Source: Anaerolineae bacterium
GTDB lineage: Bacteria; Chloroflexota; Anaerolineae; B4-G1
Assembly (NCBI GenBank): GCA_016931785.1
Contig: JAFGED010000319.1
Location: 1 to 38,722 of the forward strand
Length of the DNA: 38,722 bases
Direction: 5' to 3'
Shown: in pieces, positions 16,458-38,400 of the stretch
Numbering within the stretch: the first letter of the stretch is position 1
Layout: each line of letters begins with the position of its first letter
Program-made: the position numbers and the translations under genes
The notes under the pieces: generated by a model
What the model was told of the DNA's origin: nothing
The model's database searches: none
Seen by the model: the letters and a program-made list of their open reading frames with translations, nothing else

Positions 16458-16459
16458 TC

Positions 16460-18196: not shown

Positions 18197-18203
18197 GTTG
18201 CAG

Positions 18204-18231
18204 ATTATACGATAGGCGTTCGGGGTGTCAA
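18204..18231 (-). promoter_or_regulatory. Near-consensus promoter giving a leaderless transcript
   Basis: Minus strand: -35 TTGACA (18226-18231), 16-nt spacer, -10 TATAAT (18204-18209). Seven bases separate the -10 from GTG 18196. It stands back to back with the plus-strand promoter at 18248, the two -35 boxes being 16 bp apart. Confidence 0.8.
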
Positions 18232-18247
18232 ACAGTCATCGTAGCAG

Positions 18248-18276
18248 TTGACAGCGCCTGGCGCAGATGATACAAT
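18248..18276 (+). promoter_or_regulatory. Near-consensus promoter of glycosyltransferase 4
   Basis: -35 TTGACA (18248-18253), 17-nt spacer, -10 TACAAT (18271-18276). The ORF-track start (TTG 18248) is this -35 box, so translation must start later, at ATG 18299. Confidence 0.82.
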
Positions 18277-18298
18277 GCCCCGCCGGTTGGAGTTTTTG

Positions 18299-20857
18299 AT
18301 GAAAGGTCTAGGTCGACGGATTGGTTTGCTTGCAGCGGCGGCGATTCTAGGGGCTGTGATTCTAGCGGTGCCCCTTCCGCTCGTGCGCTTTGGCGCGGCG
18401 TTCGTCCTGCTGTGGGTGCTGCCGGGCTTGGCTTGGACGTCCCTCATCCCACAGAGCGCACTCGATCGCATCGAGCGGGTAGCCGTGGGTTTGGGCCTCA
18501 GCTTTGCCGTGTCCCCCGTCGTTACGCTGTTGGTCACGGACCTCCCCGGACCGGTTAGCCGCGGTGGCCTTTTGATTGCGATGATGGCGGGGATCGGCTC
18601 GCCGCTGGCTCTATCGGCGCTGAGGCGCCTGGTGCCCGGGTTGAGGGAGCGCCCTGTGGATGCCGAGCCGCGCAGGTGGATGGGCCTCAGGGCGGCCTTT
18701 TGCAGTCAGCAAACCCTGTGGCGCGGCGGTTGGGCGTGGCTCTTGGTCGCGGTTCTCATCGCCGCTGCGCTGCGCGTGGTCAATCTGGGGTATGCCGAGT
18801 TTCAGGGGGACGAGGCCGCCGTGCTGGTGCGCGCTGCCCAGGCCCTGGAGGGGGATGAGGCCGCTGTCTTCCAGCACAAAAAAGGCCCGGCGGAGCTCGC
18901 GGTGGTGATGGCGGGTTGGCGCTTGACCGGGATGACGGGCGAGTGGATGGCGCGCCTGCCCTTTGCCTGGGCGGGGGTGCTGGGTGTGGCCGCCGTGTTC
19001 CTGTGCGGTCGCCGCCTGGGCCGCCCGCACGCAGGAGGCATCGCGGCGTGCTTGCTGGCCATCGAGGGATTTTTCGTCGGTTTTGGGCGCATCGTGCAGT
19101 ACCAGAGCCTAGTGTTCGCTCTTGGCACGCTGGGCTTGTTGTGCCTGTTTGCCTATCGGGAGCGCGGGCGCGGCGGCCTGGTCATCGCCGGCGCGGCTTT
19201 CTTCGCCTGCGGTATGCTGGCTCATTACGACGCCATGCTGGCGCTGCCTGCTGGCCTGCTGCTCGTGGCCGCCCGGCTGTGGCGCGACCGCCAAACGGGC
19301 TGGCGGGCCTTGGTCCCGATCGTGATCGCTGCCCTGGTCGGTCTCGCGCTGTTGGGGTTGTTCTACGTTCCCCTCCTGCGCAGCTCATACGCGGGGGATA
19401 CGTCCTATTACTTGTCGGGCCGCATAGGCAGCGGCTTTTATAATCACCTGGAGTCCACGTTCGAACTGAGCGCCGTCTACGACGCCGTCTACTTGCTGGC
19501 GGTGATGGGGTTGGCGCTGGCCGGTCAGATCGCGGTGACGTGGGGCCGGTGGCGCCGCGTGGGGCTGGCGCTGGCGGTCGCGCTCCTCGCGCTGGCGGTC
19601 ACGGGGTTGGTTTTGCCGGAGCGGTGGGTGGTCGGCGAGCGGACGTTAGCCTGGATACCCTTTGCCATTCTGCTGGCCGGAGCCGTGCTAGCTCCGAGGC
19701 AAACGGCGGGCGAGCGGGCCCTGTGGCTGTGGTTGGCAGTACCGGCCTTGTTCTACCTTTTCCTCGTCGCTCTGCCGCTGACACATATTCACACAGCCTT
19801 CCCTGCCTGGGCGCTGCTGGCCGGCGTGGGACTCGCCGGCTTGGGGCGCTGGTTGGCGAGCAAGTCCAGGATAGCGCTGCGCTTCGTCGCGGTCGGCGGT
19901 GTGGTGGTGTACGTGCTCTGCGGCTGTTACGCGGTGATGATGTTCGTGAACCACATCCCCGAGTATCGGCGCACGTTCCCGCAGTCCAGGAACCCGGTAT
20001 ACTGGACGCCCTACGAGCAGATGCCGGAAGCTGGTTTTTTCGGCTTTCCCTATCGCGCGGGCTGGAAGGTCGTGGGGCACTTGATAGATGAAGGGGTGTT
20101 GGTCGGCACTTATGATAGCAACGAGGAGCAAGAGATCACCGACTATTACACCCGCCAGGCGGTGCGCCTGAGATGCGCCACCCCTGATATGTACGTCATC
20201 GCGGCCAACGTTCAGGACCAGGTTCCAGTGCCCTGGGAGCAGATCGAAGAGGAGTACGAGGCGATTGCCACGATCACGGTTGGCGATCAGCCCAAGATCA
20301 CCGTCTATGGCCGGGGTGGATCGGGCCAGCCCAAGGTCTATAAGGTGGAGGCGTATGACCGGCTGTTCGACCTTTGGTCGACGCCGGATCGAGTGGCGTG
20401 GCTCACTTCGGACAGGCTGGAGGCAGCCATACCGGCGGAATACGTGCCGTACGAAGTCACCTTCGGCAACGTCGCCCGCTTGCTGGGCTACACGGTCGAT
20501 ACCAGCCACGCTGTCCCCGGTGGCTACGTGGAATTGACCCTGCTTTGGCAGGCGTTGGAGCCCACGCCGGTTGACTACCACGTGTTCACGCATCTCCACG
20601 ACGGCGAGGCGATGCGCGGGCAGCTCGATGGGCAGCCGGTGTGTGGCGGCTTTCCGACCTCGCGCTGGCAGCCCGGCCAGGTTATCGCCGACCCCTACCG
20701 CATCCCGGTGTGGGGGGACGCGCCTCCCGGCCAGGTGCCCCTGCGCGTAGGCATGTACGATTTCGTGACCATGCAGCGTCTGCCTGTGACATCGCCCGAT
20801 GGAGCGCCTGCCGGTGACAGCGTGCATCTGACCGATGTGGAGATACGGGAGCCTTAG
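18299..20857 (+). CDS. Long PMT/ArnT-like membrane glycosyltransferase (GT-C) with extra N-terminal membrane region
   Basis: The 852-aa protein carries about 150 extra N-terminal residues with four hydrophobic segments (FGAAFVLLWVLPGLAWTSL, resembling the DUF1616-type region of other surface-polysaccharide proteins). A standard GT-C body follows. The first-loop motif AEFQGDEAAVLVRAAQAL (about residues 167-184) contains the acidic GDEA, which recurs at once in EGDEAAVFQHKKGPAEL. The C-terminal beta module begins near residue 724: ARLLGYTVDTSHAVPGGYVE, VDYHVFTHLHDGEAM, PPGQVPLRVGMYDF. ATG 18299 has GGAG 6 nt upstream and is consistent with the promoter. Lipid-linked sugar donor and acceptor are unknown. 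It is separated from the next gene by a new promoter. Confidence 0.85.
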   Translation: MKGLGRRIGLLAAAAILGAVILAVPLPLVRFGAAFVLLWVLPGLAWTSLIPQSALDRIERVAVGLGLSFAVSPVVTLLVTDLPGPVSRGGLLIAMMAGIGSPLALSALRRLVPGLRERPVDAEPRRWMGLRAAFCSQQTLWRGGWAWLLVAVLIAAALRVVNLGYAEFQGDEAAVLVRAAQALEGDEAAVFQHKKGPAELAVVMAGWRLTGMTGEWMARLPFAWAGVLGVAAVFLCGRRLGRPHAGGIAACLLAIEGFFVGFGRIVQYQSLVFALGTLGLLCLFAYRERGRGGLVIAGAAFFACGMLAHYDAMLALPAGLLLVAARLWRDRQTGWRALVPIVIAALVGLALLGLFYVPLLRSSYAGDTSYYLSGRIGSGFYNHLESTFELSAVYDAVYLLAVMGLALAGQIAVTWGRWRRVGLALAVALLALAVTGLVLPERWVVGERTLAWIPFAILLAGAVLAPRQTAGERALWLWLAVPALFYLFLVALPLTHIHTAFPAWALLAGVGLAGLGRWLASKSRIALRFVAVGGVVVYVLCGCYAVMMFVNHIPEYRRTFPQSRNPVYWTPYEQMPEAGFFGFPYRAGWKVVGHLIDEGVLVGTYDSNEEQEITDYYTRQAVRLRCATPDMYVIAANVQDQVPVPWEQIEEEYEAIATITVGDQPKITVYGRGGSGQPKVYKVEAYDRLFDLWSTPDRVAWLTSDRLEAAIPAEYVPYEVTFGNVARLLGYTVDTSHAVPGGYVELTLLWQALEPTPVDYHVFTHLHDGEAMRGQLDGQPVCGGFPTSRWQPGQVIADPYRIPVWGDAPPGQVPLRVGMYDFVTMQRLPVTSPDGAPAGDSVHLTDVEIREP

Positions 20858-20906
20858 AGGTCCGCTAGGGCGGCGTAAACGCGAGATTATGTCATCCGCG
20901 CACTGG

Positions 20907-20935
20907 TTGACAGTGCTCGCAGCAGGTGGTACAAT
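20907..20935 (+). promoter_or_regulatory. Near-consensus promoter of the DUF11 surface protein
   Basis: -35 TTGACA (20907-20912), 17-nt spacer, -10 TACAAT (20930-20935). It has the same boxes and spacing as the promoter at 18248. Confidence 0.82.
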
Positions 20936-20978
20936 CCCCCTGCTCCCCCAAAAGTTAAGTGAGCGAGAGAGGTGAAAA

Positions 20979-22835
20979 GTGGAGATTTACGAGAAATTAC
21001 GTACGCGCCCGGTGGCTTTGGTGTTGACGGCGGTTGGACTGGCTTTGCTGCTCGTGACTATCCTTTCATTGTCGCTTTCTGCACGCGCAGAGCCGGCGGC
21101 TGATCTGGATGTGAGTAAAACGGTCAATACAGGCCAGGCTGCACCTGGCGATACGCTGACTTACACTATTCACATAACTAACAACGTACAGGTCAATTTT
21201 GCTCTATGGATGACGGACACGCTACCGCCGGAGGTGGATTATGTCGCTGATAGCTTGCAGGTGATCCCTCCAGGAACAGGCAGTGCCGGCATCGCGAATG
21301 ATGTGTTAACCTGGACGGCCGCCTCATTTGGCTGGAATCAGCAGGTCATAATCGTCTACAGTGCTCAGATATCTACCGCACTTGCTTCTGCTACAATCAC
21401 CAACACCGCTGAGGTCACCGGTACCGGTAGCCTGGTCACGTCGAACATGGTTTCCACGGGGGTTTCCCCTGGAGAGCTGCAGGTCTCCAAGGAGGCCGGT
21501 TCGTCCTTCGCCCGTCCTGGCGAGCAGTTGGGCTACACCATCCACATAGCCAACGTCGGCGGCGGCGCCGTCAGCGCGGTGTCGATGACGGATCCCCTAC
21601 CGCCGGAGGTGAGCTATGTGAGCGGCCCAAGTGTATCCGGGTGGGGTGAGGGAAGCTGCGGTGTGTCGGGGGACTTCATCACCTGCACCGGCCGCATGGA
21701 GTCGGGGGAGGCGGCCACCATCGATTTCACCGTCGTCGTCAGCGCCGGGTTGAGCGAGGGCACCTACTTTACAAACACGGTGTACGTCAGTGGTGCCGGG
21801 CTTCCGCTCTCGGCCTCCGTGGCAATGCAGGTAAACGAGAACATGATGTATTATCTGCCTATGGTGATGTATAACTACCCCCCTGTAGTTGTCATGGATC
21901 CTATCGAGGTGCTTGAGGGGATTGTCTACACCGTCACCTGGGATTGTGGTTCCTGTGAGCTGCAGGCAGATCAATTCGTGCTTCAAGAGGCGACGGACGC
22001 TGACTTTACGCAAAACGTGACCGAGTATACGACCACGGCGACGTCGCGCTTTTTCAGCAAAGGCTCGTCTTCGGACATTTACTTCTACAAGGTTCGGGCC
22101 GACGGCGACTGGGGGCAGGGCCAGTGGAGCAACGTCGAATCGATCGGCTTTTACGACGAGTTCGATGACGCCTCGACCGGGTGGCCGGACGATAGGGGAG
22201 TGATGTACGTTGGTGGGGACGGAGTCGTCCACTACTGGTGGCGAAAATACCTGCCGACGACGGGCAGCGGGCAGTATCGCATCCTGATCGACCAGGGCGG
22301 GCCCTACGCCTGGTTCTACCAGCCTTTTGCGCCTGCTCCTTACGTTCCGTCTAGCAACAAGTATTGCATCGAGACCGAAATGAAGTTCGAGGAAGGCAAT
22401 ATGTGGGCGAACATGGGAGTGGTCATTGGCGCTCACGAGACAGATACGCAGATATATGCCTTCTGCATGTCTCGGAACAACGAGGATGGGTTAGGATGGT
22501 TCCTCATGCGCAAAGATGACTATCAGTTCCCAACCGACGAGCCCAAGTACCGCCGCGGCTGCTCCGGCCCGACGTTCAAGATAGAGGGCTTTGCACCGGC
22601 TGGACAGGGAGTACGCACCGGCACTAGCCGCGAGAGCTGGAACCGGGTGCGGCTCGGCATCGATGGGGACACGGTCAAGGTCTACATCGGCAATTACTAT
22701 AAGGGCGAGGCGACGTTGGCTGGCCTGCACAACACGACGTATATCGGCTTGATCGGCGGTGATTACGAACTGACCCCGATAGACATTCGCTTTGACTACT
22801 TTAAGGTGATACAGGGCTCGGACTGCAGTTACTAA
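20979..22835 (+). CDS. Secreted DUF11-repeat surface protein
   Basis: The 618-aa protein has a long signal peptide (PVALVLTAVGLALLLVTIL...SARA). Two DUF11 beta-sandwich repeats follow: DLDVSKTVNTGQAAPGDTLT at about residues 43-150 and LQVSKEAGSSFARPGEQLGY at about 163-280. A short linker YYLPMVMYNYPP comes next, then a region with a possible Ig-like segment and a C-terminal concanavalin-like or laminin-G-like domain (FYDEFDDASTGWPDD, WNRVRLGIDGDTVKVYIGN, IDIRFDYFKVIQ). Such proteins are adhesins or wall-layer components; a specific ligand cannot be given. GTG 20979 is preceded by GAGAGAGGTG. Flanked by glycosyltransferases, it is a plausible glycosylation target, which is inference only. Confidence 0.83.
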   Translation: MEIYEKLRTRPVALVLTAVGLALLLVTILSLSLSARAEPAADLDVSKTVNTGQAAPGDTLTYTIHITNNVQVNFALWMTDTLPPEVDYVADSLQVIPPGTGSAGIANDVLTWTAASFGWNQQVIIVYSAQISTALASATITNTAEVTGTGSLVTSNMVSTGVSPGELQVSKEAGSSFARPGEQLGYTIHIANVGGGAVSAVSMTDPLPPEVSYVSGPSVSGWGEGSCGVSGDFITCTGRMESGEAATIDFTVVVSAGLSEGTYFTNTVYVSGAGLPLSASVAMQVNENMMYYLPMVMYNYPPVVVMDPIEVLEGIVYTVTWDCGSCELQADQFVLQEATDADFTQNVTEYTTTATSRFFSKGSSSDIYFYKVRADGDWGQGQWSNVESIGFYDEFDDASTGWPDDRGVMYVGGDGVVHYWWRKYLPTTGSGQYRILIDQGGPYAWFYQPFAPAPYVPSSNKYCIETEMKFEEGNMWANMGVVIGAHETDTQIYAFCMSRNNEDGLGWFLMRKDDYQFPTDEPKYRRGCSGPTFKIEGFAPAGQGVRTGTSRESWNRVRLGIDGDTVKVYIGNYYKGEATLAGLHNTTYIGLIGGDYELTPIDIRFDYFKVIQGSDCSY

Positions 22836-22888
22836 GGGCCCGTAAAAGGATAACTTGCGGTTTCGAGTCGTGATCTTGCAGCGAGGAT

Positions 22889-22914
22889 GGGGATGCTCAT
22901 ACCTGGGCATCCCC
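22889..22914 (+). terminator. Hairpin after the DUF11 gene
   Basis: GGGGATGC (22889-22896) pairs with GCATCCCC (22907-22914) across a 10-nt loop, followed by GTTACTTT. The T-run is interrupted. It lies only 15 nt before the next start codon, so it may attenuate rather than end transcription. Confidence 0.6.
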
Positions 22915-22929
22915 GTTACTTTGTGCTAA

Positions 22930-24933
22930 ATGGAGAGACTCTTTTCGATTCCCAAGCGTGAACTGATTCTGTCGTGCGCCATCGTGCTCCTGGCGGCCTG
23001 GCTGCGCTTTGATCGCATCGACCAGGCCGAGTTCCTGTGGGATCAGGCGGAGATATCCAAGTGCGGGTTGACGATGGCGCGGGAGGGCGAGATCGCCTGG
23101 GTCGGGACGCTCTCGTCCACGGGGTTGAACTTTTTCATGGGGGCGGCTTGGTTGATGGCTATCCCCCATGCTCTCTCGACCAGCCCCGTTTTCGCTACCG
23201 GTTTCGTGGCGTTTATCAACTTACTGGCCGTGGTAGGCTGCTACTTTCTTGCCCGAACGTGGTTCGGTCGAACGGCAGCCCTGGTGGCGACCTTACTGTT
23301 CGCCGTCTCGCCGTGGGCTGTGATCTATTCCAGAAAAGTGTGGCATCTGAACTTTTTGCCACCCTTTGTGCTGCTCTATGCGGCGACCGGCTGGCTGGCC
23401 TTTGTGCGCGGTCGTCGTTGGGCCGCGGTGGCGCATGCCCTTGCGTTAGCGGCTCTCGTGCAACTTCACTTTGCCGCCTTTTCCTTCATCTTTCTGACGG
23501 TGCTGTGGGCGCTGGTTTTCCGCAAGCGGCTGGATTGGCAAGCCGCATTGATCGGAGGTGTGCTGGCTGCCCTGACCTTTGTCCCGTACTTTGTCGTCGA
23601 CGCGCAAAGGGACTGGCGCAACGTACGGCGCTTTATCGAACTCGTGCAAAAGCCGTCGGTGATGAGCGCGGATGCGGTGTACGATACCTGGGTCATCACC
23701 ACCGGGCTGGACCTGCATTGGCTGACCGGCCCGGACCGTTACGCCGAGTTCGTCGCCGGCACACTCAACGTGCGCTGGCTCTTTGCCATCGTGGGCGCGC
23801 TGGCTATCGCCGGGAGTATCATCGCGTTGTGGAAAGTGATCCGCCGGGCGCGCGTTGGCCTCGATGAAGAGACCGCCGCTGCCTTGATGGCCGTCACCTG
23901 GCTGGCAATGCCCGTCCTGCTCATGACGCGATACACCGTGCCGCCCGCTCCGCACTATTTCACCGCGACCTTTTCGGCCCAGTTCATCCTCGTTGGCTGG
24001 GTGGTGGCGCTGGCAGCCCGCCTGCCGCGCTGGATCGGGCGGGTTGGTCCGGGAGTGCTCGTCACGGTCTTGGTGGTCGTCGCCGCCGCGCAGGTCTACG
24101 AGGTCACCTCTGTGTTGCGGTTCGTGACGACCCACGACACGCGGCGTGGCTATGGCACTCCCGTCGGCTATGAGGTCCAGGCAGTCCAGACGGCTGAACA
24201 CCTGGGCCAGGAGATCGATAGCAAAGAGGTGATCGTTCTCTCCGAGGGTGACGAGCCCGGCATGTACGAAATACCCGCCGTGGCCGATGTGCTGATGTAC
24301 GGAGAACCGCACCGTGCGGTGGATATCCGTACGGCGCTCGTATTTCCTGCCGCCCCCGCCGTCTATTGGGCGGCCTACGATATGACGCCCGGCGAGGAGT
24401 TGCTGGCTGCGCTCACCCCCGAGGTCGCAGATGCTCGCATCCCGCTGCGCGAGGGAATCCGTTCCTTCCGCTTCTACCGCTGGCCGGGAGGTGAGCCCGA
24501 TATCGCGTGTATGCAACCCCTGCCCGATGGCCCGCGCACCTGGGCCAGCGGCGCGCAGTTGGTTGGCTATTGTCTGGAAGGGGACCTGAGCCCTGGCAAT
24601 ACCGTGCATTGGACGTTGATCTGGCGGGTAACCCGTACCACAACCGAGGATATCTACTATCATTGGTTCAACCATCTGTTGGATGGAGAAGGGCAGAAGC
24701 TCGAGCAGCGGGACGGACCGAGTCTTCATACCGAATACTGGCGGTCCGGCGATACGGTTCTCAACTGGTTTGATCTGCAGATCCCGGGGGACGCGCCGCC
24801 AGGCGATTACACGATGCGCGTGGGCATGTACACCTACACGCGTTCTGACGTCATCGAGAACGTGCCGCTGGTCGACGCGGACGGCGAGCCGGCGGGAGAG
24901 TGGGTCCTGATCGGACCATTGCAGGCAAAGTAG
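22930..24933 (+). CDS. PMT/ArnT-like membrane glycosyltransferase (GT-C) 5
   Basis: The 667-aa protein begins with a short cytoplasmic tail and about a dozen membrane helices. The acidic first-loop motif is altered to AEFLWDQAEISK (about residues 34-45), with Gln between Asp and Ala-Glu. The segment FAVSPWAVIYSRKVWHLNFL is typical of this GT group. The shared C-terminal beta module begins near residue 543: AQLVGYCLEGDLSPGNTVHW, YYHWFNHLLDGEGQKLEQRD, APPGDYTMRVGMYTY. No Shine-Dalgarno site is obvious before ATG 22930. It is followed after 26 nt by the YfhO-like gene and probably opens an operon running to 30484. Confidence 0.84.
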   Translation: MERLFSIPKRELILSCAIVLLAAWLRFDRIDQAEFLWDQAEISKCGLTMAREGEIAWVGTLSSTGLNFFMGAAWLMAIPHALSTSPVFATGFVAFINLLAVVGCYFLARTWFGRTAALVATLLFAVSPWAVIYSRKVWHLNFLPPFVLLYAATGWLAFVRGRRWAAVAHALALAALVQLHFAAFSFIFLTVLWALVFRKRLDWQAALIGGVLAALTFVPYFVVDAQRDWRNVRRFIELVQKPSVMSADAVYDTWVITTGLDLHWLTGPDRYAEFVAGTLNVRWLFAIVGALAIAGSIIALWKVIRRARVGLDEETAAALMAVTWLAMPVLLMTRYTVPPAPHYFTATFSAQFILVGWVVALAARLPRWIGRVGPGVLVTVLVVVAAAQVYEVTSVLRFVTTHDTRRGYGTPVGYEVQAVQTAEHLGQEIDSKEVIVLSEGDEPGMYEIPAVADVLMYGEPHRAVDIRTALVFPAAPAVYWAAYDMTPGEELLAALTPEVADARIPLREGIRSFRFYRWPGGEPDIACMQPLPDGPRTWASGAQLVGYCLEGDLSPGNTVHWTLIWRVTRTTTEDIYYHWFNHLLDGEGQKLEQRDGPSLHTEYWRSGDTVLNWFDLQIPGDAPPGDYTMRVGMYTYTRSDVIENVPLVDADGEPAGEWVLIGPLQAK

Positions 24934-24959
24934 CAGGTTAGACGAGAGGGCAAGGCCAA

Positions 24960-27212
24960 ATGAGAAGGATGAGCGGATTATGGTGCAGAATCTGGTCCGT
25001 GGCTGTGCTGGCGCTGCTGTGCGGGGTCTTTTTCTGGGACGTGCTGTGGCTGCCCGGCAACCGCATCGTCGCCGGGAACGACCTGGCCAACATGTTCACT
25101 CACTGGCTCGGCTTTGCCTCCTCCTCGATCCGGCAGGGCCGGCTTCCTCTGTGGAACCCCTATCTTTCTTCGGGCCTGCCTTTCGTGGCCAACCCGCAAC
25201 CGGCGTTGTTCTACCCCCCCACGTGGCTGGCGCTGTTGGTGCCAGTCCCCAAGGCGCTGGGCCTGATCGTCGTGCTGCACCTGTGGCTTGCGGGCGTGGG
25301 GATGGTCGCCTGGCTGCGTTCGGAGGGGGCGTCGGAGGCGGGGGCGCTTCTGAGTGGAATCGTCTTTGCCTTCAGCGGCTACTTTTTCGTGCGCGTGCAG
25401 GCGGGCCACCTGGGCGTCATCACTACGGGTTCGTGGCTGCCGTTCACGCTGTGGGCCTACCGGCGGGCCGTGACGCGCCGCTCGTGGGCTCTCGCCGCTC
25501 TGGGCGGGCTGCCGGTCGGGCTTTCGATCCTGGCAGGGCACACGGCCTCTTTCCTCTACGTGGCGCTGGGGCTGGTTGCCTACGCCGCCTTCTGCGCCTG
25601 GGGGCGCTGGCGGGAGGAGCGGTCGGCGCGCGCGCTAGCCTTGCCCCTCGCTTGGTTGAGCGTGATGCTGATCGTCGGGTTGGCGCTGGCGGCGGTGCAG
25701 GTCCTGCCGATGGTCGAGTTGGTGACCCACTCGATCCGCCAGACCGCCAGCTACGATTTTGCCGCCCGGTTTTCCTGGCCTCCGGGCCACCTGCTGACCC
25801 TGCTGGCGCCCAACTTTTTCGGCGAGCCGCTGCACACCGGCTACTGGGGCGACGGCATCTATGACGAGTTCGTCTTTTACGTCGGCATCTTGCCGCTGCT
25901 GCTAGCGCTGCTGGCGCTAAAGCTGCGCCACCGGTTGAACCCGTTCCTGTTCGCCCTCGGCCTGGGCGCGTTGCTGCTGGCCTTTGGGGAGTACGGCGCG
26001 CTCCATCGCCTGTTCTACCGCTTCGTGCCGCTGTTCCAATCGGCGCGGGCGCCGGCTCGGGCCGGCTTCCTCTTCACGGCTGCCGCCGCCGCATTGGCTG
26101 GCCTGATGGTGACGGCGCTCCAGCCTGCCGACCGTGAAGAGCGCGAGCGGCTGCTTTCGCCGCTAAAGTACTCGTTGGTCTTGACCGTGGCGGGGATCGG
26201 TTCGGCGCTGGTCGTGGCCGGATTCGCGGCCTTCGCCTGGGGGCGGGAATCGAACCCGGCGGCCGGGCGGCTGTACCACCTGGCCAACCAGGCGGCGGTG
26301 TTTGTGCTGTTCTTTCTCCTGTCGGCTGTCCTGTTGAAAGCCTGGCGCTCGGACGCGCTCCCGCGCGTCCTGTTCTTGCTGCTGGCGCTCGGGCTGGTGG
26401 TGCTGGACCTGTGGACGTTCGGCGGCCGGGCGGTGGAGCCGGTGGACGTGGAGGAGAGCGGCTACTGGCGCAGCGTGGCCCAGGCGGTGGACGATCCTCA
26501 AACGACGCGGGTGCTCCCCTGGGGCTTGAACGACATCGAGCACAACGGCGGCATGCCGTTTGGGCTGCGCAGCGTCTTTGGATACGACCCGCTCGTCCTC
26601 CAGCGCTATGAGGAGTTTATCACCTCCGTGGCCGATCCCCGCGCGCGGACCTACGATCTCTTGAACGCGGGCTACCTGGTGACGACCGCCCCGCAGGATT
26701 TCCCCGACGCGCCCGGCTCTCCGCGCTTGGTGTCGGAGCAGTCCGGCGTGTGGGTCTACGAGCGGCCCGGCGCGCTGCCGCCTGCCTGGGTCGCGCCGCA
26801 GGTCGAGGTGCTGGACGATGCCGGCATCCTGGCCCGCATCCACGGGCCGGACTTTGACCCGCGCGCGGTGGCGCTGGTAGAATCGCCGCTGGCGTGCGCG
26901 GGCGATGGCTCCGGCGAGGTCGAGATCGTGCGCCGCGAGGGAAATCGGGTCGAGGCGCGGACGCAGGGCGGCGGTGGGCTGCTGGTCTTTAGCGAGGTCC
27001 ACTATCCTGGCTGGCGGGCCGAGGTGGATGGTCAACCTGTGCCGCTGGTGCGCGCCGATTACGTCCTGCGCGCCGTCTGCGTGCCCGCGGGCGAGCACAG
27101 GGTCGTGCTGGCGTACGATCCGCCGCTGCTAAAGATCGGCCTGGCGGTCACCGGCCTGGCTTTGCTATCCACCATCGGCATCGCCGTGTGGCGACTGCTG
27201 CGGCGGAGGTAA
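24960..27212 (+). CDS. YfhO-like polytopic membrane protein
   Basis: The 750-aa protein has an N-terminal helix, then GNDLANMFTHWLGFASSSI and WNPYLSSGLPFVANPQPALF, the opening pattern of YfhO-family proteins (bacterial GT-C-like membrane proteins; B. subtilis YfhO is implicated in lipoteichoic acid glycosylation). About a dozen membrane segments follow. The soluble C-terminal part ends GLLVFSEVHYPGWRAEVDGQ, then PAGEHRVVLAYDPP before a last helix, also a YfhO signature. It lacks the beta module seen in the neighbouring glycosyltransferases. It probably works with them in decorating a surface polymer. ATG 24960 is chosen; ATG 24969 is possible. The next gene starts 7 nt after its stop, with its GGAGG inside the end of this gene. 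Confidence 0.84.
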   Translation: MRRMSGLWCRIWSVAVLALLCGVFFWDVLWLPGNRIVAGNDLANMFTHWLGFASSSIRQGRLPLWNPYLSSGLPFVANPQPALFYPPTWLALLVPVPKALGLIVVLHLWLAGVGMVAWLRSEGASEAGALLSGIVFAFSGYFFVRVQAGHLGVITTGSWLPFTLWAYRRAVTRRSWALAALGGLPVGLSILAGHTASFLYVALGLVAYAAFCAWGRWREERSARALALPLAWLSVMLIVGLALAAVQVLPMVELVTHSIRQTASYDFAARFSWPPGHLLTLLAPNFFGEPLHTGYWGDGIYDEFVFYVGILPLLLALLALKLRHRLNPFLFALGLGALLLAFGEYGALHRLFYRFVPLFQSARAPARAGFLFTAAAAALAGLMVTALQPADREERERLLSPLKYSLVLTVAGIGSALVVAGFAAFAWGRESNPAAGRLYHLANQAAVFVLFFLLSAVLLKAWRSDALPRVLFLLLALGLVVLDLWTFGGRAVEPVDVEESGYWRSVAQAVDDPQTTRVLPWGLNDIEHNGGMPFGLRSVFGYDPLVLQRYEEFITSVADPRARTYDLLNAGYLVTTAPQDFPDAPGSPRLVSEQSGVWVYERPGALPPAWVAPQVEVLDDAGILARIHGPDFDPRAVALVESPLACAGDGSGEVEIVRREGNRVEARTQGGGGLLVFSEVHYPGWRAEVDGQPVPLVRADYVLRAVCVPAGEHRVVLAYDPPLLKIGLAVTGLALLSTIGIAVWRLLRRR

Positions 27213-27219
27213 ACGCGCT

Positions 27220-29436
27220 ATGGTAGCAACCCTTCGCCGTTGGTCATTACTTCATTGGTCATTGCTAATTATCCTGGCTGCCTACCTGGCGCTGGCCGTC
27301 GCCTACAGCCTGGCCTCCCCTATCTACGAGCCCACCGACGAGGTGCGCCACTTTCGCTACGTGCGCCACATCCTCGTCTACCGCGAGCTGCCCGTGCAAT
27401 CGGCCGAGGGGCCGCGCGCGCAGAGCCATCACCCGCCGCTCTACTACGCGCTCGGCGCGCTGGCCAGTTGGTGGGTGCCGGTGGAGCAGGACGTCTACTA
27501 CGACCCGCCTACCAATCCCCACTGGGACAACCGCCACTGGGAGGTCAGCGACGATAACAAGAACCAGTACCTCCACGGCGCCGGCGAGGCCTTTCCCTTC
27601 CACGGCGTCACCCTGGCCGTGTACGCGGTGCGCTGGATGACGGTGCTCATCGGCGCGGGCGTCGTCTGCGTCACCTATTTTATCGGGCGCGAGGTTTCTC
27701 CCGACCGGCCTGCGGTGGCTGTAGGCGCGGCTGCGCTCGTCGCCTTCACCCCGCAGTTTATCTACCTGAGCGGCGCGATCAACAACGATATCGCAGCGGC
27801 GCTGGCGGGCACTGCGGTGCTCTGGGCGTGCGTCCGGCTGGTGCGGCGCGGCCCGAGCTGGCGCGCCGATGTGATGATGGGCGTGCTCTACGGCTTGGCG
27901 CTCCTCACCAAGTTCAACCTCCTGGTCCTGCTGGCGCTGATCGAGCTGGCCTACGTGCTGGCCGTGTGGAGGAACCATGATGGGCGTGCATTCTTGCGGG
28001 GCAATGGGATCGTCCTGGGGCTGACCGCCCTGATCGCCGGTTGGTGGTTCGTGCGCAACTGGGCGCTCTACGGCGACCCTGCCGGTTTGAGCGTGCTCAA
28101 CGATCTGTGGGCCGGGAGGCCGTTCTTTGAAGGGCTGTGGGCGATTCCCCAGAGCCTGCCCTACCTGTGGAGCAGCCTGTGGGGGCGCTTTGGATACGGG
28201 CAGCTTCCTCTGCCCGAGGCCGTTTACCAGGGGCTGTTCTGGTTTTACGCGGCGGCGCTGGCTGGACTTGTCGTTATCCGGCGGCGCGACGGCGCGCTTT
28301 CGGTCCTGGCGCTTTTGGCGGGCAGCGTTCTGATTTTCACGGCCTGGGTGCTGTACTACATCGCGATCCAACCCGCCGGCCCGATGGGGCGCTTTCTGTT
28401 CCCCTGTTTGCCGGCGTTTGCTCTGCTGGTCGTTCGGGGTCTGAGCCAGTTCCTCCCCAGCCGCTGGGGTTGGCTATCGGGAGCGGTCGTGGCGGTGGGG
28501 ATGGCGGCGCTGGCCGTCTACGCGCTGGTCGGCGTGCTGGCCCCGGCCTTTGGCCGCCCGCGGCCGCTGACCGCCGCCGAGATCGAGGCTATACCGAATC
28601 GCGCGGACGTCGATCTTGGCGGCATAGCGCGCCTGCTGGGTTACGAGGTCGCGCCGACCACCGCCAGGCCGGGCGAGGTGGTAGAGGTCACGCTCTACTG
28701 GGAGCCGCTGGCGCGGACCGAGCAGAACTATGCCGTTTTCGTTCACCTGTTGAGCGACGTGGGCACGATGGTGGCCCAGCGCGATACGTATCCCGGCCTG
28801 GGGCGCTACCTGACCACCGCGTGGGAGCCGGGCGTCGCTTTTGCCGATACCTACCGCGTCCACATCCCCGAGGCGGCCTACGCTCCGGACGCAGGATATA
28901 TCCAGGTGGGCCTCTACCTGCCCGATGGCCCGCGCCTCGCCGCGCCCGACGGGCGCGACGCGCTGCGCCTGGCGACGATCGAGATCCTGCCCCACGCGAG
29001 CGAATTCCCCAATCCGCTGGACGCCAACTTTGACGGCAAGGCCGCGCTGATCGGCTATACGCTGGATAGACGCATCGTGCGCCCTGGCGAGACCATCCGC
29101 CTGACCCTCTACTGGCGGGCGCTGGCCCCGATGGAAAAGAGCTACGGCGTGTTTGCCCACGTCCTCGGCGATCAGGACCAGGTCTGGGCGTGGAAAGACG
29201 GCTGGCCGGTTGATGGCCTCGCGCCGACCTTTACCTGGCAGCCCGGGCAGATCATCGAGGACGTGCGCGACCTGCCGTTGGGGGAGACGACGCCGCCCGG
29301 CTTTTACGATATCGAGGTGGGCCTGCACGGCGATGGCCGCCTGCCGGTCGTGGCGCAGGATGGTCGCTGGCTGGGCAATCGCGTGTTGTTGAGCAAGATC
29401 CGCGTGGTGGAGGAGACGTATCTTTTCAATAAATAG
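27220..29436 (+). CDS. GT-C membrane glycosyltransferase 6 with duplicated C-terminal module; stop codon supplied by a MITE
   Basis: The 738-aa protein has first-loop motif YEPTDEVRHFRYVRHI (about residues 35-50) and AQSHHPPLYYALGALASWWV, typical of a GT-C subgroup, then membrane helices to about residue 460. Two copies of the beta module follow: ARLLGYEV...PGEVVEVTLYWEPL (about 468-595) and ALIGYTLD...PGETIRLTLYWRAL (about 607-731). The Shine-Dalgarno site GGAGG lies in the end of the upstream gene. Residues WSLLHWSLL are encoded by a TTGGTCA-type repeat. The final residues YLFNK and the TAG stop come from the MITE at 29418-29510. Removing the element and one duplicate restores an ending EETSQ with TGA overlapping the next ATG. 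Confidence 0.86.
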   Translation: MVATLRRWSLLHWSLLIILAAYLALAVAYSLASPIYEPTDEVRHFRYVRHILVYRELPVQSAEGPRAQSHHPPLYYALGALASWWVPVEQDVYYDPPTNPHWDNRHWEVSDDNKNQYLHGAGEAFPFHGVTLAVYAVRWMTVLIGAGVVCVTYFIGREVSPDRPAVAVGAAALVAFTPQFIYLSGAINNDIAAALAGTAVLWACVRLVRRGPSWRADVMMGVLYGLALLTKFNLLVLLALIELAYVLAVWRNHDGRAFLRGNGIVLGLTALIAGWWFVRNWALYGDPAGLSVLNDLWAGRPFFEGLWAIPQSLPYLWSSLWGRFGYGQLPLPEAVYQGLFWFYAAALAGLVVIRRRDGALSVLALLAGSVLIFTAWVLYYIAIQPAGPMGRFLFPCLPAFALLVVRGLSQFLPSRWGWLSGAVVAVGMAALAVYALVGVLAPAFGRPRPLTAAEIEAIPNRADVDLGGIARLLGYEVAPTTARPGEVVEVTLYWEPLARTEQNYAVFVHLLSDVGTMVAQRDTYPGLGRYLTTAWEPGVAFADTYRVHIPEAAYAPDAGYIQVGLYLPDGPRLAAPDGRDALRLATIEILPHASEFPNPLDANFDGKAALIGYTLDRRIVRPGETIRLTLYWRALAPMEKSYGVFAHVLGDQDQVWAWKDGWPVDGLAPTFTWQPGQIIEDVRDLPLGETTPPGFYDIEVGLHGDGRLPVVAQDGRWLGNRVLLSKIRVVEETYLFNK
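27240..27268 (+). repeat. TTGGTCA heptamer-type repeat in the start of glycosyltransferase 6
   Basis: Units TTGGTCA, TTACTTCA, TTGGTCA, TTGCTAA encode most of WSLLHWSLLI before the first helix. TTGGTCA-type heptamers are known short tandem repeats in cyanobacteria. Confidence 0.65.
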
Positions 29437-29510
29437 GGGAAGATGGGGGGTGTGAGGGCGGCGTAGCCGCCCTCACACCCCCCCCGCTCCCCGGATTATT
29501 GAGGTGATAC
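29418..29510. mobile_element. Complete MITE, copy 3, with 8-bp target site duplication
   Basis: This 93-bp element has ends GTATCTTTTCAATAA and, reverse-complemented, GTATCACCTCAATAA. The core is the 18-bp-arm hairpin GGGGGGTGTGAGGGCGGC with loop GTA. It is flanked exactly by GAGGAGAC at 29410-29417 and 29511-29518. It inserted in the last codons of the upstream gene and separates it from the downstream gene, which it formerly overlapped. Confidence 0.93.
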
Positions 29511-29516
29511 GAGGAG
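29511..29516 (+). promoter_or_regulatory. Ribosome binding site regenerated by target duplication
   Basis: GAGGAG lies 8 nt before ATG 29525 and is part of the duplicated target GAGGAGAC. The site that served the downstream gene before insertion was copied, so initiation is preserved. This also selects ATG 29525 over the GTG at 29504, which lies within the MITE. Confidence 0.85.
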
Positions 29517-29524
29517 ACTTCTCA

Positions 29525-30484
29525 ATGAAAAAGCACTGGATGAACATCCTGCGGGTGGCGATCACCGTGGCGGCATTGGCCTTCCTGTTCTTGACGGTCG
29601 ATCTGCGCAAGGTGTTGGGCAATCTGGGAGAAGCCAACCTGTTCTACTTGGGAGCTGCGTTTCTGCTCTTTGTGTTCAGCTTGGGCCTGCGAGCCTATCG
29701 CTGGTTCGTGCTGCTGCAGGGGCTCGACCCCGAGGTGCCCTTTGGCCGCCTGCTGCGCCTGTATTTTGTCGGGCAGTTCTTTAGCTCGTTCCTGCCCAGC
29801 GGCTACGGCGGCGACGTGGTGCGGGCGCTGGAGCTGACCCAGGATACCGAGTCCTCGGCGGCTATCGGCACCGTTCTGCTCGACCGTGCGACCGGCCTGC
29901 TGGTCAACTTTGCCATCGGGCTGATCGTGCTGCCCTTCGTCGCCGCTCGCATGGAGCCCTGGCTGGTGTGGTTGCTCATCGTCGTGGCGGGCGGCGGGCT
30001 GATCGCTGGCGCGTTGATCCTGGAAGGGCGCTTGCTGCGGCGGATCACGGGTTGGCTGCCGGCCAGGCTGTCGCTGGTTGGAGAAGGGCCGCTGGCCAAG
30101 ATCTATGCGGCGATCACCGGCTGCGGCTGGCCGGCGGTCCTGCGCGCCTTTGGCGTTTCGCTGGCGTTCAACGTCTTGAACGTCGTCATCAATTGGTTGT
30201 GCGGGCAGGCGCTCGATATCGGGGTCGACCTGGGGTACTTTTTCGTCGTCACGCCGCTGCTCTCCGTGGCGACGCTCGTTCCCTCCATCGGTGGGTGGGG
30301 GATTCGGGAGAACGTGAGCCGCGCCCTCTTTGCCCCAACCGGCGCGGCCGAGGATGTGTCGGCGGCGTTGGGCGCGTCGATCGGGCTGATCACGCTGGCG
30401 TCAGGGTTGGTCGGCGGGGTGGTTCACGGGGTCGAGCTGCTGCGCGGCTTTCGCCGGAAGCCGCCGGAAGAGGGTGTCGATTGA
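29525..30484 (+). CDS. LPG-synthase-TM / UPF0104 family membrane protein (flippase-like)
   Basis: The 319-aa protein has eight or so membrane segments and the family signatures FFSSFLPSGYGGDVVRALEL (about residues 85-104) and LVPSIGGWGIRENVSRALF (about 254-272). This family includes the membrane half of lysylphosphatidylglycerol synthase (MprF), whose membrane part flips the lipid, and many stand-alone proteins next to glycosyltransferases. A role in translocating or transferring a lipid-linked precursor fits the context but is inference. No aminoacyl-transferase domain is attached. Originally the start overlapped the upstream stop (ATGA); a MITE now separates them. The stop TGA overlaps the -35 box of the next gene's promoter. 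Confidence 0.85.
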   Translation: MKKHWMNILRVAITVAALAFLFLTVDLRKVLGNLGEANLFYLGAAFLLFVFSLGLRAYRWFVLLQGLDPEVPFGRLLRLYFVGQFFSSFLPSGYGGDVVRALELTQDTESSAAIGTVLLDRATGLLVNFAIGLIVLPFVAARMEPWLVWLLIVVAGGGLIAGALILEGRLLRRITGWLPARLSLVGEGPLAKIYAAITGCGWPAVLRAFGVSLAFNVLNVVINWLCGQALDIGVDLGYFFVVTPLLSVATLVPSIGGWGIRENVSRALFAPTGAAEDVSAALGASIGLITLASGLVGGVVHGVELLRGFRRKPPEEGVD

Positions 30485-32301: not shown

Positions 32302-32389
32302 GTATCTTCTCAATAAGGGGAAGATGGGGGGTGTGAGGGCGGCTACGCCGCCCTCACACCCCCCGCCCCCTGGATTATTGAGATGATAC
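32302..32389. mobile_element. Complete MITE, copy 4, with 8-bp target site duplication
   Basis: This 88-bp element has ends GTATCTTCTCAATAA and, reverse-complemented, GTATCATCTCAATAA. The core arms are the same 18 bp as copy 3 but with the loop TAC instead of GTA. It is flanked exactly by CCGCTTGC at 32294-32301 and 32390-32397. It lies just upstream of the macroglobulin promoter. Confidence 0.94.
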
Positions 32390-32417
32390 CCGCTTGCTAT
32401 TGTGCGGGCGTGTCTTG

Positions 32418-32455
32418 TGATATACTGTTGATGCAGCATCGTGCCGCGCGGCACG
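32418..32455 (+). promoter_or_regulatory. Extended -10 promoter and leader palindrome of the macroglobulin gene
   Basis: TGATATACT (32418-32426) is an extended -10 without a good -35. The leader contains the perfect 16-bp palindrome CGTGCCGCGCGGCACG (32440-32455), four bases before the AGGAGG ribosome binding site. The palindrome could be an operator or an RNA hairpin affecting ribosome access. Confidence 0.55.
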
Positions 32456-32472
32456 GCGCAGGAGGTATTCCG

Positions 32473-35400
32473 ATGAAAAAGACGTCCCTTTATAGGGTCC
32501 TGGTGTTCGTTTTGCTTTGCAGCTTGCTGGCAGGCTGCCTGTGTCCCGCCGATCCTACGGCGACCCCTGTCTCGACTCCTCCGCCGTACACGCCGCCTCC
32601 ACCCGGGAACGTCGCCCCCGTCGTCGTCCAGCGCACGCCGGAGCCGGGCGAGGAGCTGGCGATCGATGCCGCCATCCAATTGGTCTTTGACCGGCCGATG
32701 GACAAGCGCTCCGTCGAGTCGGCTTTCCTCGTCGGCCCTGGCATCTCAGGCGCCATCGAGTGGATCGACGACCGTACGGTGAACTTTCGGCCCGCCCGCG
32801 CGCTGGAGCGGGATGCGGAGTACCTGGTCACCGTCGGCCCGGAGGCAAAGGCGGCCGACGGCAATGCCATCGATGGGGCTTACCGCTTTCGCTTTCGCAC
32901 CGTCGGCTTCCTTGAGGTGGCGCAGGTTATCCCCGCCCCCGGCACGGCTGACGTGCAGGCTGAGAGCGCCATCACCGTCATCTTTAACCGGCCCGTCGTC
33001 GCGCTGACGGCGGTCAGCGACCCGGCCTACACGGAGCTGCCCCAGCCGCTCGCCTTCGACCCACCCATCGCCGGCGGCGGCGAGTGGCTCAACACCTCGA
33101 TCTACGTCTTTACTCCCGACAGGCCCCTGGCCGGGGGTACTACCTACACCGCGCGCATCGCAGCCGGGCTGGAGGATACCACCGGCGGCGTGTTGGGCGA
33201 GGACTATGAATGGACGTTCTCCACCCAGCCGCCACAGGTCGTGTGGCTCGCGCCGTCCGAGGACGAGCAGTTGGTCGGCGTCGATACCGCCGTGCAGGTC
33301 ATTTTCAATATGCCGATCGATCCGGCCTCGGCAAAGGCGGCGTTCCACCTGGAGGCTGCGGGCGCGCAGGTCGCCGGCACCACGGAGGTGGACGGCTCGA
33401 CGCTCGTCTTTACCCCCGACCGCTGGCTATCCTTCGATACGACCTACACGGCGCGGGTGGATAAGGGCGTACGGAGCGCAGGGGGTGGCGCCGGCATGCG
33501 GGAGGACTATGTGTGGCGTTTCACCACCGTTCCCCTGCCGTACATCGTGAGCACCAGTCCTTACAACGGCCAGCGGGATGCCTGGCCCTACACCACCTTC
33601 TCAATCGTCTTTAACACACCCATCGATCCTGCCACGGTGATGCCAAACCTGGAAATGACGCCGCCGCTTTCTCCGACGCAGGTTTATACGTACTTTAGCC
33701 GTTGGGACAACACCTTCGTGCTCAGCTTTGGCGCGCAGCCATCCACCGATTACGAGGTGCGCATCGGGCCAAACATCGCCGATCCCTACGGCAACGTCAC
33801 CGGCCAGGAGTTGACGGTGCGCTTCCGCACCGCCGACCTCGACCCCTGGGCCGAGATCCGCGTGCCCTCGACGGTCGGTACTCTCGACGCCAACCAGCCG
33901 GCGCGCGTCGCGGTCAGCCACCTGAACACCAATCGGCTCGACCTGAGTCTCTACCGGCTTGATGTGGACGAGTTCTTCCGCGCTCAGCAGAATTGGTGGG
34001 AGTACGCACCGGCCGGCAGCCCGATTCGTCAGTGGTCGGTAAGTGTGGAGGCGCCGCTCAACGAGACGGAATCCGCGCTACTAGACCTGGCTGATGGCGG
34101 GGCACTCGCGCCGGGTGTCTACCTGCTCGATCTCAGGGCCCCCGGTGTGAGGTACGATAACTGGAGCCACCGCAAGCTGTTGGTCGTCTCCAAGTACAAT
34201 CTGACGCTCAAGCGGAGTTGGGACAAGGTGTGGATATGGGCGACCGATCTGGAGACCGGGCAGCCTGCCGGCGGGCTCAAGTTGGCGGTGCTCGACTACT
34301 CCGGCTCGGTGATCGGCTCTGCGACGACCGGCGCGGATGGCGTCGCGTCCCTCTCGCTGAGCGCCACGGGTGATGTCTACGTCGTGGCGCAGGAACCTTT
34401 CGTGATCGCCGGGACGAGCTGGGACTGGAGCGCGGGCATCAGCCCGTGGGAGTTTGGCCTGGAGACGGAGCCCACATACCCGCATTACCGCGCGCACGTC
34501 TACACCGATCGACCTATCTACCGGCCCGGACAGACCGTCTACTTCCGCGGCGTCATCCGCATGGAGGATGACGTGCACTACAGCCTGCCGGCGGGGCGGA
34601 ACGTCGCGGTAAGCATCTACGACGCCGTTGGCGAGGAGGTCTACCGGGAAACGCTCTCGCTGGATGAATACGGCGCTTTCCACGGCGAGTTGGCGCTGCC
34701 GGAGGGGGCGTCGTTGGGCGGGTATTACCTCAATGCGCACCTGGGCGAGGATTACTTTGACGCCATGTTCCAGGTCGCCGCCTACCGCCCGCCAGAGTTC
34801 GAGGTGGTCGTCACACCGCAAAAGACGGAGCTGGCTGCCGGACAGTCTACCAAGGCCAGCGTCGAGGTGAGCTACTTTTTCGGCGGGCCCGTCGCCAATG
34901 CCGCCGTCGAGTGGCACGTTCTCTCCACGCCTTACCGCTTCGAGCCGACCCAGTTTGGCCGCTATAGCTTTGGCGATGACGACGACCCCTGGGTCTGCCG
35001 CTGGTGCTGGTGGTGGGAGGAACCCACGCCCGAGTTCGTCCTCGGAGGCTCCGGGTCGACGGATGCTGATGGGCGTTTGACCGTCGTCCTGCCGACGGAG
35101 GTGATGACCGGCGGGCAGAGGCTGACGGTCGAGGCCACCGTCTATGGCAACGATGGACAGGTCATCTCCGGCCGCGGCGACATCGTGGTGCACAGGGGCG
35201 AGTTCTACGTGGGCCTGGCCCCACAGCAGTATGTCGGCGAGGCCGGCAAGGAGATGGCGGTGGACGTCGTGACCGTGAATTGGGCGGGCGAGCGACTGGC
35301 CAGGCAGGACCTGGAGTTCGAGGTTTACCGCCGCGAGTGGATCAACACGTTCGTGGAGAGTGAGGGGAGTGGTCACTGGGAGTGGGAGACTGAAGACACG

Positions 35401-38400
35401 CTGGTCTATTCCGGCACGCTGACCACCGACGCCCGCGCCGAGGGCGTGGTGGCCTTTACTCCTGAGGTAGGCGGTTCCTATCGCGTCGTCGTAGGTAGCC
35501 CCCCCTTAGCCCCCCCCGCAAGCGGGGGGGGAACGGAAGGGATGCGCAGCTCTACGTGGGTGTGGGCCACCGGGGATGGGTACATCTCCTGGCTGCGGCA
35601 GAACAACGACCGCATCACCCTCATCAGCGACAAGACCTCCTACGTCCCCGGCGAGACGGCCGAGGTTCTGATCCCCAGTCCTTTTGCGGGCGAGCATTGG
35701 GCGTGGATCACCGTCGAGCGAGGCGGTGTGTTGACCCAGGAGGTGCTGCGGCTGGAGAACAACTCCACCGTCTACAGGCTGCCCATCACCGCCGACCACG
35801 CGCCCAATATCTACGTCTCTGCGGTCATCTTCAAGGGGCCGGATGCCGCCTCTCCTGACGGAGAGGGAGAGCCGGTGGCGACCCACAAGGTGGGCTACGT
35901 CCTGCTGACGGTCGAGCCGGTGGAGCAGACGTTGAGCGTCACGCTGACCCCCAGCGCTAGGCAGGCGGAGCCGGGCGATACCGTCACCTTTGACGTGCTG
36001 GTCCGCGACGCCGCTGGCAAGCCGGTGCAGGCCGCCTTCTCCCTCGACCTGGTCGACAAGGCGGTGCTCAGCCTGCAGCCGCGCACGCCGAACGCCATCA
36101 ATGAGGAGTTCTACCGGCAGCGGGGCCTGGGCGTCACGACCTACAGCGGGTTGGCCATCTCTGTCAACCGGCTGGTGGAGGAAGAAAAGGAGGATCTCGG
36201 GGCGCCCTTGGGCATGGGCGGCGGAGGCGACGCGGGGGAGGAAGCGCCATCTGAGCTGCCCCCGCCGGCAGCGCCCACGCCCGCGCCGGGAGTTGAAGAG
36301 GATAAGCGCAGTGAGGCAACTGGGCTTCCGCCCGGCGTCGAGCTGCGAGAGGAGTTCGAGGACACCGCCTTCTGGAACGCCAACGTCGTCACCGATGGGG
36401 ACGGCCGCGCCACCGTCGAGGTCAAGCTGCCCGATAACCTCACCACCTGGGTCATGCGCGGCGTCGGCGCGACCGCCGACACGCATGTGGGCGAGGGGAC
36501 GGTCGAGCTGCTGGTCACCAAGCCGCTGCTGGTGCGGCCCGTGGCGCCGCGCTTCTTCGTCGTGGGCGACCGGGTGCAACTGGCGGCGCTGGTCAGCAAC
36601 AACACCGGCAAGGCGCAGGAGGTTGAGGTTTCGCTGCTTGCCGAAGGGTTGAAAATCAGCGGATCGGCGAGCCAGCGAGTGAGCATCGCCGATGGGGGCG
36701 AGGCCAAGGTCACCTGGTGGGTGGAGGTCGGGGACGTGGAGGCGGTCGACGTGGTGATGAGCGCCGTCGCCGGGGAGTACTCCGACGCCGCGCGACCTCG
36801 ACTTACAACTGGCCCCGACGGCACGCTCCTGGTTTACCGCTACGCCGCGCCCGAGATCGTGGGCACCGGCGGGCAGCTGGTGGGCGAGGACGCGCGCACC
36901 GAGGTGATCGCGCTGCCGCCCAAGTACGACGACCGGCAGGGCGAGCTCACCGTGCGGCTCGATCCATCGCTGGCGGCGGGGATGCGCGACGGCCTGACCT
37001 ACCTGGAGCATTATCCATACGAGTGCACCGAGCAGGTAGTCTCGCGGTTCTTGCCGAACGTGCTGACCTACCAGGCGCTGAAGAGGCTGGATATCAGAGA
37101 TCAAGAGCTGGAGGCGCGGCTGCCCGGCTTGGTCGAGGAAGGGATAGATAAGCTCGTCCTGCGGCAGAACGGCGACGGCGGCTGGGGATGGTGGTACGGC
37201 AATGAGAGCAACCCCTACCTGAGTGCTTACGCCGTCTTTGGGCTGGTCAGGGCGCAGGAGGCCGGGTTCGAGGTGCCGGAGGGGACCCTGCGGCGCGGCC
37301 TGGCTTACCTGGAGGGCACGCTGGTGCGCGCTCGCGACCTGCAATCCTATCGTGAGGCCAACCGGCAGGCGTTCGTGCTCTACGTGCTGGCCGAGGCCGG
37401 CGAGACGAAGCGCGCAAGCGAATATGTAGGTGACCTCTTCGACCGCCGCGACAAGCTCAGCCACTACGGGCGGGCGTTCCTGGCGATGACGCTGGGGTTG
37501 ATCGACGCGGGCGATGGCCGGATCAACACTCTCCTCTCAGACCTGCAAAACGACGCCATCCTCAGCGCCACCGGCGCTCACTGGGAGGAGGCCAATTACG
37601 ACCGGTGGGCGATGAACACCGACACGCGCTCCACGGCGGTCATCCTGGACGCGCTGGTGCACCTCGATCCCGGGAACGCCGCCGATGGCGGCCTCATCCC
37701 GCAGGTGGTGCGCTGGCTGATGGTCGCCCGCAGGGACGGCATCTGGGAGACCACGCAGGAGACGGCCTGGGCGCTCATCGCACTCTCCGACTGGATGGCC
37801 GTCACCGGCGAGCTGGAGGGCGAGTATGCGTACGGCGTGTGGCTCAACGGCGATGCCCTAGCTGCGGGTGAGGTGACGCCGTCAACTGTCGACGAGTCGG
37901 TGCACTTGCGCGTGGGAGTGGCGGAGCTACTTGCCGACGCGGGCAACCGGCTCACTGTGGGGCGCGGGCCGGGCGAGGGTCGCTTGTACTACACCGCGCA
38001 TCTCAAGGTCTACCTGCCGGTGGAGGAGATCGAGCCGCTCAACCGGGGCGTCATCGTCCAGCGCCGGTACGTCGATCCCGATTGCACGCTGGGGGCCAAG
38101 TGCCCGGAGGTGAACAAGGTCGAGGTCGGCGACGTGGTGCAGGTGCGGCTGACCATCATCGCGCCGCACGATCTGTACTATGTGGTCGTCGAGGACCCGC
38201 TGCCGGCCGGCGCCGAGGCGATCGATCCCAGCCTGGCGACGACGAGCTTGGCGGCGGAGGAGCCCGGGCTCTATCGCGGGAAGGAAGGGGAGGAGGGGTA
38301 CGACTTTTACCACTGGTGGTGGCGCTGGTACAGCCACAGCGAGTTGCGGGATGAAAAGGTGGTGCTCTTTGCCGACTACCTGCCGGCGGGTACCTACGAG

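What the first reader, a model, noticed from the sequence alone, without database searches (positions are those of the whole stretch)
29410..29528. A MITE supplies the stop codon of one gene and duplicated the ribosome binding site of the next
The 93-bp element (29418-29510) is flanked by perfect GAGGAGAC repeats. Its left end encodes YLFNK and the TAG stop of glycosyltransferase 6. Removing the element plus one repeat gives codons GAG GAG ACT TCT CAA TGA, where the TGA overlaps the ATG of the flippase-like gene as ATGA. The ancestral state was therefore a translationally coupled pair. The duplicated target is also the Shine-Dalgarno site of the downstream gene, so initiation survived while coupling was replaced by a strong hairpin. 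This is a clear case of a palindromic element remodelling an operon junction without destroying either gene.
Basis: seen in the sequence. Interest (0 to 1): 0.82.

Follow-up and report, generated by a model that had tools for sequence, protein, structure and literature searches.

The report
Jumping DNA element remodelling an operon junction
A 93-base mobile DNA element, one of dozens of copies in this uncultured Chloroflexota genome, jumped between two overlapping genes, gave the first a new stop codon and copied the ribosome-binding site of the second, so both genes stayed intact; this is a well-documented example of a known kind of event.

Summary
A 93-bp palindrome (29418-29510) lies between perfect GAGGAGAC repeats. 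It is one of at least 60 copies in this genome (31 with exact 8-bp target duplications, 12 more with one mismatch). I found the likely source: IS66-type elements (single ORF, ISBst12-like) in relatives, with the same GTATCTTMTCAATAA ends and 8-bp duplications. No exact empty allele was available, but eight orthologous junctions lacking the element were found. Six overlap or abut; two have 25-28 nt spacers. The inferred pre-insertion ending, RVVEETSQ* with an ATGA overlap, matches the commonest state. So "stop supplied, Shine-Dalgarno site duplicated, overlap lost" is well supported. Loss of coupling is inferred: the 88-nt gap far exceeds the ~20 nt that abolishes reinitiation elsewhere. The hairpin has no terminator-like T-run, and folding predicts a more accessible start site after insertion, so reduced downstream expression is not indicated. 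Duplication of a Shine-Dalgarno site recurs at other copies in this and a sister genome, but not clearly more often than intergenic insertion would give. MITEs entering operons harmlessly, or supplying stops, are known; this is a good new member, not a new kind.

The parts
27220..29436 (+). membrane glycosyltransferase gene (PMT/ArnT-like, 738 aa); last 5 codons (YLFNK) and TAG come from the element
   Evidence: PF02366 2.8e-9; orthologues end ..KIRVKDG*..IRVEEP*..QIRVADD*
29410..29417 (.). left copy of the 8-bp target duplication GAGGAGAC (still coding: EET)
29418..29510 (.). 93-bp MITE, GTATCTTTTCAATAA...TTATTGAGGTGATAC
   Evidence: 40 scored places in own genome incl. this one; 60 copies examined; alignment A2
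29434..29436 (+). TAG stop codon inside the element
   Evidence: a second copy supplies the same kind of tail, YLLDK*, at L201
29511..29518 (+). right copy of GAGGAGAC, serving as Shine-Dalgarno site of the flippase-like gene
   Evidence: GAGGAG ends 8 nt before ATG 29525
29525..30484 (+). flippase-like gene (LPG synthase TM / TIGR00374), 319 aa
   Evidence: PF03706 2.4e-36; TIGR00374 5.7e-15
32302..32389 (.). second copy of the same MITE family, target duplication CCGCTTGC

Best explanation
The palindrome is a non-autonomous IS66-type (ISBst12-like) MITE that transposed into an overlapping glycosyltransferase/flippase gene pair. The cut fell in the last codons of the glycosyltransferase, exactly over the Shine-Dalgarno site of the next gene. 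The 8-bp target duplication left one copy of GAGGAGAC in the upstream coding frame and put the other, with its original spacing to the ATG, in front of the flippase gene. The element's end supplied five codons and a TAG stop. Shown: copies, ends, duplications, partner element, overlapping state in relatives. Inferred: the insertion event itself at this site, and that the 88-nt gap now makes flippase translation independent of termination-reinitiation. The hairpin itself is probably a passenger.
For: Exact 8-bp repeats here and at 30 further copies. The same ends and 8-bp duplications flank a 1757-bp element with one 552-aa IS66-type ORF in two relatives (duplications GACCGGGA and CGCAAAAC) and a 1835-bp one with an internal TAG in a third (TGCAGATG). 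In the sister genus G002, which has over 200 copies of the ends, an IS66 N-terminus starts just inside the same end and runs off its contig. Relatives lacking the element: ATGA overlaps in G001, G027, G025 and DCVT01000054; 8-nt overlap in G002; 8-nt overlap or 1-nt gap in G004. About 20 nt of spacer nearly abolishes coupling in E. coli and H. volcanii (PMC10666635).
Against: No empty allele from the same species or genus. Two relatives (G008, G035) have 25-28 nt spacers, so overlap is not universal. The closest flippase relative (G003, 73%) has another upstream gene. No intact transposase of this type was found in the own assembly. No expression data.
Confidence: 0.9

Rival explanations
1. 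The element was kept because it does something at this junction: its long hairpin stabilises or punctuates the mRNA, or exposes the duplicated Shine-Dalgarno site, so the ratio of the two proteins is now set independently.
For: Very stable hairpin. Folding gives mean unpaired probability of about 0.70-0.77 for the Shine-Dalgarno site and 0.76-0.87 for the ATG with the element, versus 0.38-0.39 and 0.31-0.53 without it, over five window sizes.
Against: The same hairpin sits at at least 60 unrelated sites, as expected of a transposon. No terminator-like or promoter-like site. Folding of naked RNA ignores translating ribosomes.
Confidence: 0.2
2. The family prefers ribosome-binding sites as targets, so Shine-Dalgarno duplication is a property of the element rather than luck.
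For: Exact target duplications overlapping a Shine-Dalgarno core before a start codon also at L301/L009 (GH4 enzyme), L076 (MoxR-type ATPase), L034 (ferredoxin), L193 (hydrolase), and in G002 at L291, L294, L298, L300.
Against: A rough estimate (about 5 usable positions per gene, about 12% non-coding DNA; my own figures, not measured) predicts 2-3 of 60 copies; 5 were seen. Insertions that break an RBS without duplicating it would be lost, which biases survivors. No shared target motif was seen.
Confidence: 0.15
3. The hairpin is a native terminator or junction structure of this operon, not an insertion.
For: Position between two co-directed genes.
Against: Multi-copy family with duplications; absent from the same junction in all relatives examined; no T-run.
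Confidence: 0.01

Closest known systems
ISBst12 group of the IS66 family (e.g. ISDge4 of Deinococcus geothermalis)
   Same: Single-ORF IS66-type transposase, 8-bp direct repeats, ends GTGACTACTCAGCA / GTAACTGCTCAGCA (PMC12898284); the partner elements here have one IS66-type ORF, 8-bp repeats and GTATCTTMTCAATAA ends; a remnant in the own genome ends GTAACTGCTCAG
   Different: The 93-bp element has no transposase; its ends diverge after GTAWCTNCTCA; the partner transposase scores below NCBIfam's IS66 cut-off (120 vs 180) though above Pfam's
Chunjie MITE of Geobacter uraniireducens
   Same: A MITE inserted in an operon without disturbing it (title of the 2008 Genetics paper, cited in PMC10969869)
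   Different: That paper is not held here, so details were not compared; 178-235 bp, other family
MITEAba12 of Acinetobacter
   Same: Non-autonomous element of similar size with duplications; its end fuses to a gene and supplies a stop (PMC6382973)
   Different: 9-bp duplications, another IS partner, and the fused gene lost 398 aa whereas here only the last codons change
Rickettsia palindromic elements
   Same: Palindromic elements adding codons to host genes (PMC10969869)
   Different: They insert within reading frames in frame; here only a 5-residue C-terminal tail and a stop are added

Membership tests
MITE (non-autonomous DNA transposon) | terminal inverted repeats | tested here: met
   GTATCTTTTCAATAA / GTATCACCTCAATAA
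MITE (non-autonomous DNA transposon) | target site duplication of fixed length at many copies | tested here: met
   31 of 60 exact 8-bp, 43 of 60 with at most one mismatch
MITE (non-autonomous DNA transposon) | short, no coding capacity, multi-copy | tested here: met
   93 bp; 95+86 end matches with one mismatch allowed, none for the control pattern
MITE (non-autonomous DNA transposon) | autonomous element sharing the ends | tested here: met
   1757-1835 bp IS66-type elements in G045, G047, G028; partial in G002; none intact in the own assembly
IS66 family, ISBst12 group | IS66-type DDE transposase as the only ORF | tested here: met
   partner elements only: PF03050 2.7e-12, over its cut-off, single 552-aa ORF; NCBIfam NF033517 E 1e-34 but below cut-off
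IS66 family, ISBst12 group | 8-bp direct repeats | tested here: met
   ISDge4 has 8 bp
IS66 family, ISBst12 group | mobilisation of this element by that transposase | not testable with these tools
   inferred from shared ends only

The most novel reading that the evidence does not exclude
An IS66-type MITE family repeatedly lands on ribosome-binding sites, where its 8-bp duplication regenerates the Shine-Dalgarno site and its left end supplies stop codons in two of three frames, so it can uncouple overlapping genes without killing either: a built-in 'safe' way of turning coupled gene pairs into independently translated ones.
Probability: 0.12. Interest if true: 0.65.

Novelty: new member of a known kind. 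Interest (0 to 1): 0.4.

Why it matters
It is a base-resolved case, backed by relatives lacking the element, of a small mobile element changing an overlapping gene pair into a spaced one while keeping both genes readable. Such events are one route by which operon junctions, and hence protein ratios, could change. The family and its likely IS66 partner in these Chloroflexota also give many natural replicates for testing what such insertions do to translation.

Tried and rejected
PF01609 and PF00872 transposases as partners: their neighbourhoods carried no matching flanking end pair. A 1487-bp pair of ends in G002 (L132) turned out to enclose an RNase H-like gene (own reading of the ORF) between repeated targets, not an IS. 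L073 lone end: no transposase beside it. Terminator reading: no T-run. Rfam: nothing at the junction. The Chunjie paper was not held.

Full report
What was checked. The finding's coordinates are right. GAGGAGAC occurs at 29410-29417 and 29511-29518; the 93 bp between them form a near-complete palindrome with 46-nt arms, folding at -70.1 kcal/mol against -34.8 for shuffles. The glycosyltransferase frame enters the element, reads YLFNK and stops at TAG 29434-29436. Joining the flanks with one repeat gives a 735-aa protein ending RVVEETSQ, whose TGA overlaps the flippase ATG by 4 nt.

It is a MITE. The element has many copies in its own genome (481 contigs, 90% complete): 40 places scored with the element as query, and 95 forward plus 86 reverse matches to the end motif with one mismatch allowed, none for the control. 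Of 60 copies with both flanks readable, 31 have exact 8-bp flanking repeats and 43 have at most one mismatch; no copy in this genome showed an exact repeat of 4-7 or of more than 8 bp. The sister-genus genome G002 carries 219 + 207 exact ends, mostly of a 110-bp version, with 8- or 9-bp repeats. A second copy lies in the window at 32302-32389 with CCGCTTGC on both sides.

The likely source. An IS66-type search of the order found elements bounded by these very ends. G045 and G047 hold a 1757-bp element with GTATCTTATCAATAA ends, 8-bp duplications (CGCAAAAC, GACCGGGA) and a single 552-aa ORF. G028 holds a 1835-bp one with GTATCTTCTCAATAA ends, duplication TGCAGATG and one internal TAG. The ORF matches PF03050 over its cut-off and NCBIfam IS66 below its cut-off. 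One end of each continues TCCGGGGG, as the right end of the MITE does (TCCGGGG in this copy). In G002 an IS66-type N-terminus lies 136 bp inside such an end and runs off the contig. ISDge4, an ISBst12-group IS66 element, has GTGACTACTCAGCA/GTAACTGCTCAGCA ends and an 8-bp repeat (PMC12898284), close to GTAWCTNCTCA here and to an IS66 remnant in the own genome (L112). No intact copy was found in the own assembly, so mobilisation is inferred.

The pre-insertion state. Eight relatives have a recognisable glycosyltransferase relative directly before the flippase gene and no element there. The gene ends overlap as ATGA in G001, G025, G027 and DCVT01000054; by 8 nt in G002; by 8 nt or with a 1-nt gap in G004, depending on the start chosen. 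Two have spacers: 28 nt in G008 and 25 nt in G035. The glycosyltransferase C-termini (KIRVKDG, PIRVEEP, QIRVADD, PIEVLE) resemble the window's KIRVVEE; none has a YLFNK-like tail. In G025 and G027 a Shine-Dalgarno-like GGAGG also lies in the last codons of the glycosyltransferase. The closest flippase (G003, 73%) has a different upstream gene and is uninformative. An exact empty allele was not available, so the event is inferred from strong but indirect evidence.

Consequences. The stop-to-start distance is now 88 nt. In E. coli and H. volcanii about 20 nt nearly abolishes termination-reinitiation (PMC10666635), so loss of coupling is likely but untested here. The regenerated Shine-Dalgarno site keeps its original 8-nt spacing. 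RNA folding over five window sizes predicts it and the ATG to be more open with the element than without (about 0.70-0.77 against 0.38-0.39 for the site; 0.76-0.87 against 0.31-0.53 for the ATG). There is no terminator-like site.

Is it special? Other copies do the same two things. L201 gives its upstream gene the tail YLLDK* in the same phase, and L071 gives a TAA. Exact duplications overlapping a Shine-Dalgarno core occur at four more copies here (L301/L009, L076, L034, L193) and four in G002 (L291, L294, L298, L300). Six of these eight downstream genes match a Pfam family over its cut-off; L294 matches only weakly and L300 was not tested. A back-of-envelope estimate of my own predicts 2-3 of 60 from intergenic restriction alone, so a target preference is not shown.

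Placing it. MITEs inside operons (Chunjie) and MITEs supplying stops (MITEAba12) are already described, as are palindromes adding residues (Rickettsia elements). I found no paper in the held library describing an IS66-derived MITE in Chloroflexota or duplication of a Shine-Dalgarno site by a MITE's target repeat, but the library is partial. Verdict: a true, well-supported and tidy example; a new member of a known kind.

Noticed in passing
window 32302-32389 and 32383-38529: Second MITE copy upstream of an alpha-2-macroglobulin-like gene; the first ATG of the listed ORF (32383) lies inside the element's right end, so the real start is probably ATG 32473 behind AGGAGG.
   Followed up: partly
window 4927-5077 and 1-121: Another MITE type with GTATCTACTCAG / GTAACTACTCAG ends (ISBst12-like), with 8-bp repeat GATTTTAG at 4927-5077; a partial copy of the same type opens the contig.
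   Followed up: partly
L077 4614-4772: Two elements with this family's end lie back to back after the same sequence TTCACGATAG, as if the second landed at the duplicated target of the first.
   Followed up: no
L039 1501-1640, L066 2541, L074 2517: Some copies carry an extra stretch in the loop of the palindrome (CTTTCGGCTTCGCCCCTCGACTCGCTCGGGGGGCGCCTCAGGACAGGCGCC-like), suggesting a second repeat nested in the hairpin centre.
   Followed up: no
window 10158-29436: A run of large membrane-glycosyltransferase-like genes (PMT/YfhO type) in tandem before the flippase-like and GNAT/FemAB-like genes.
   Followed up: no
G002 (sister genus), e.g. L205-L210: Over 200 copies of a 110-bp relative of this MITE in one genome, far more than in any other genome of the order examined.
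   Followed up: partly
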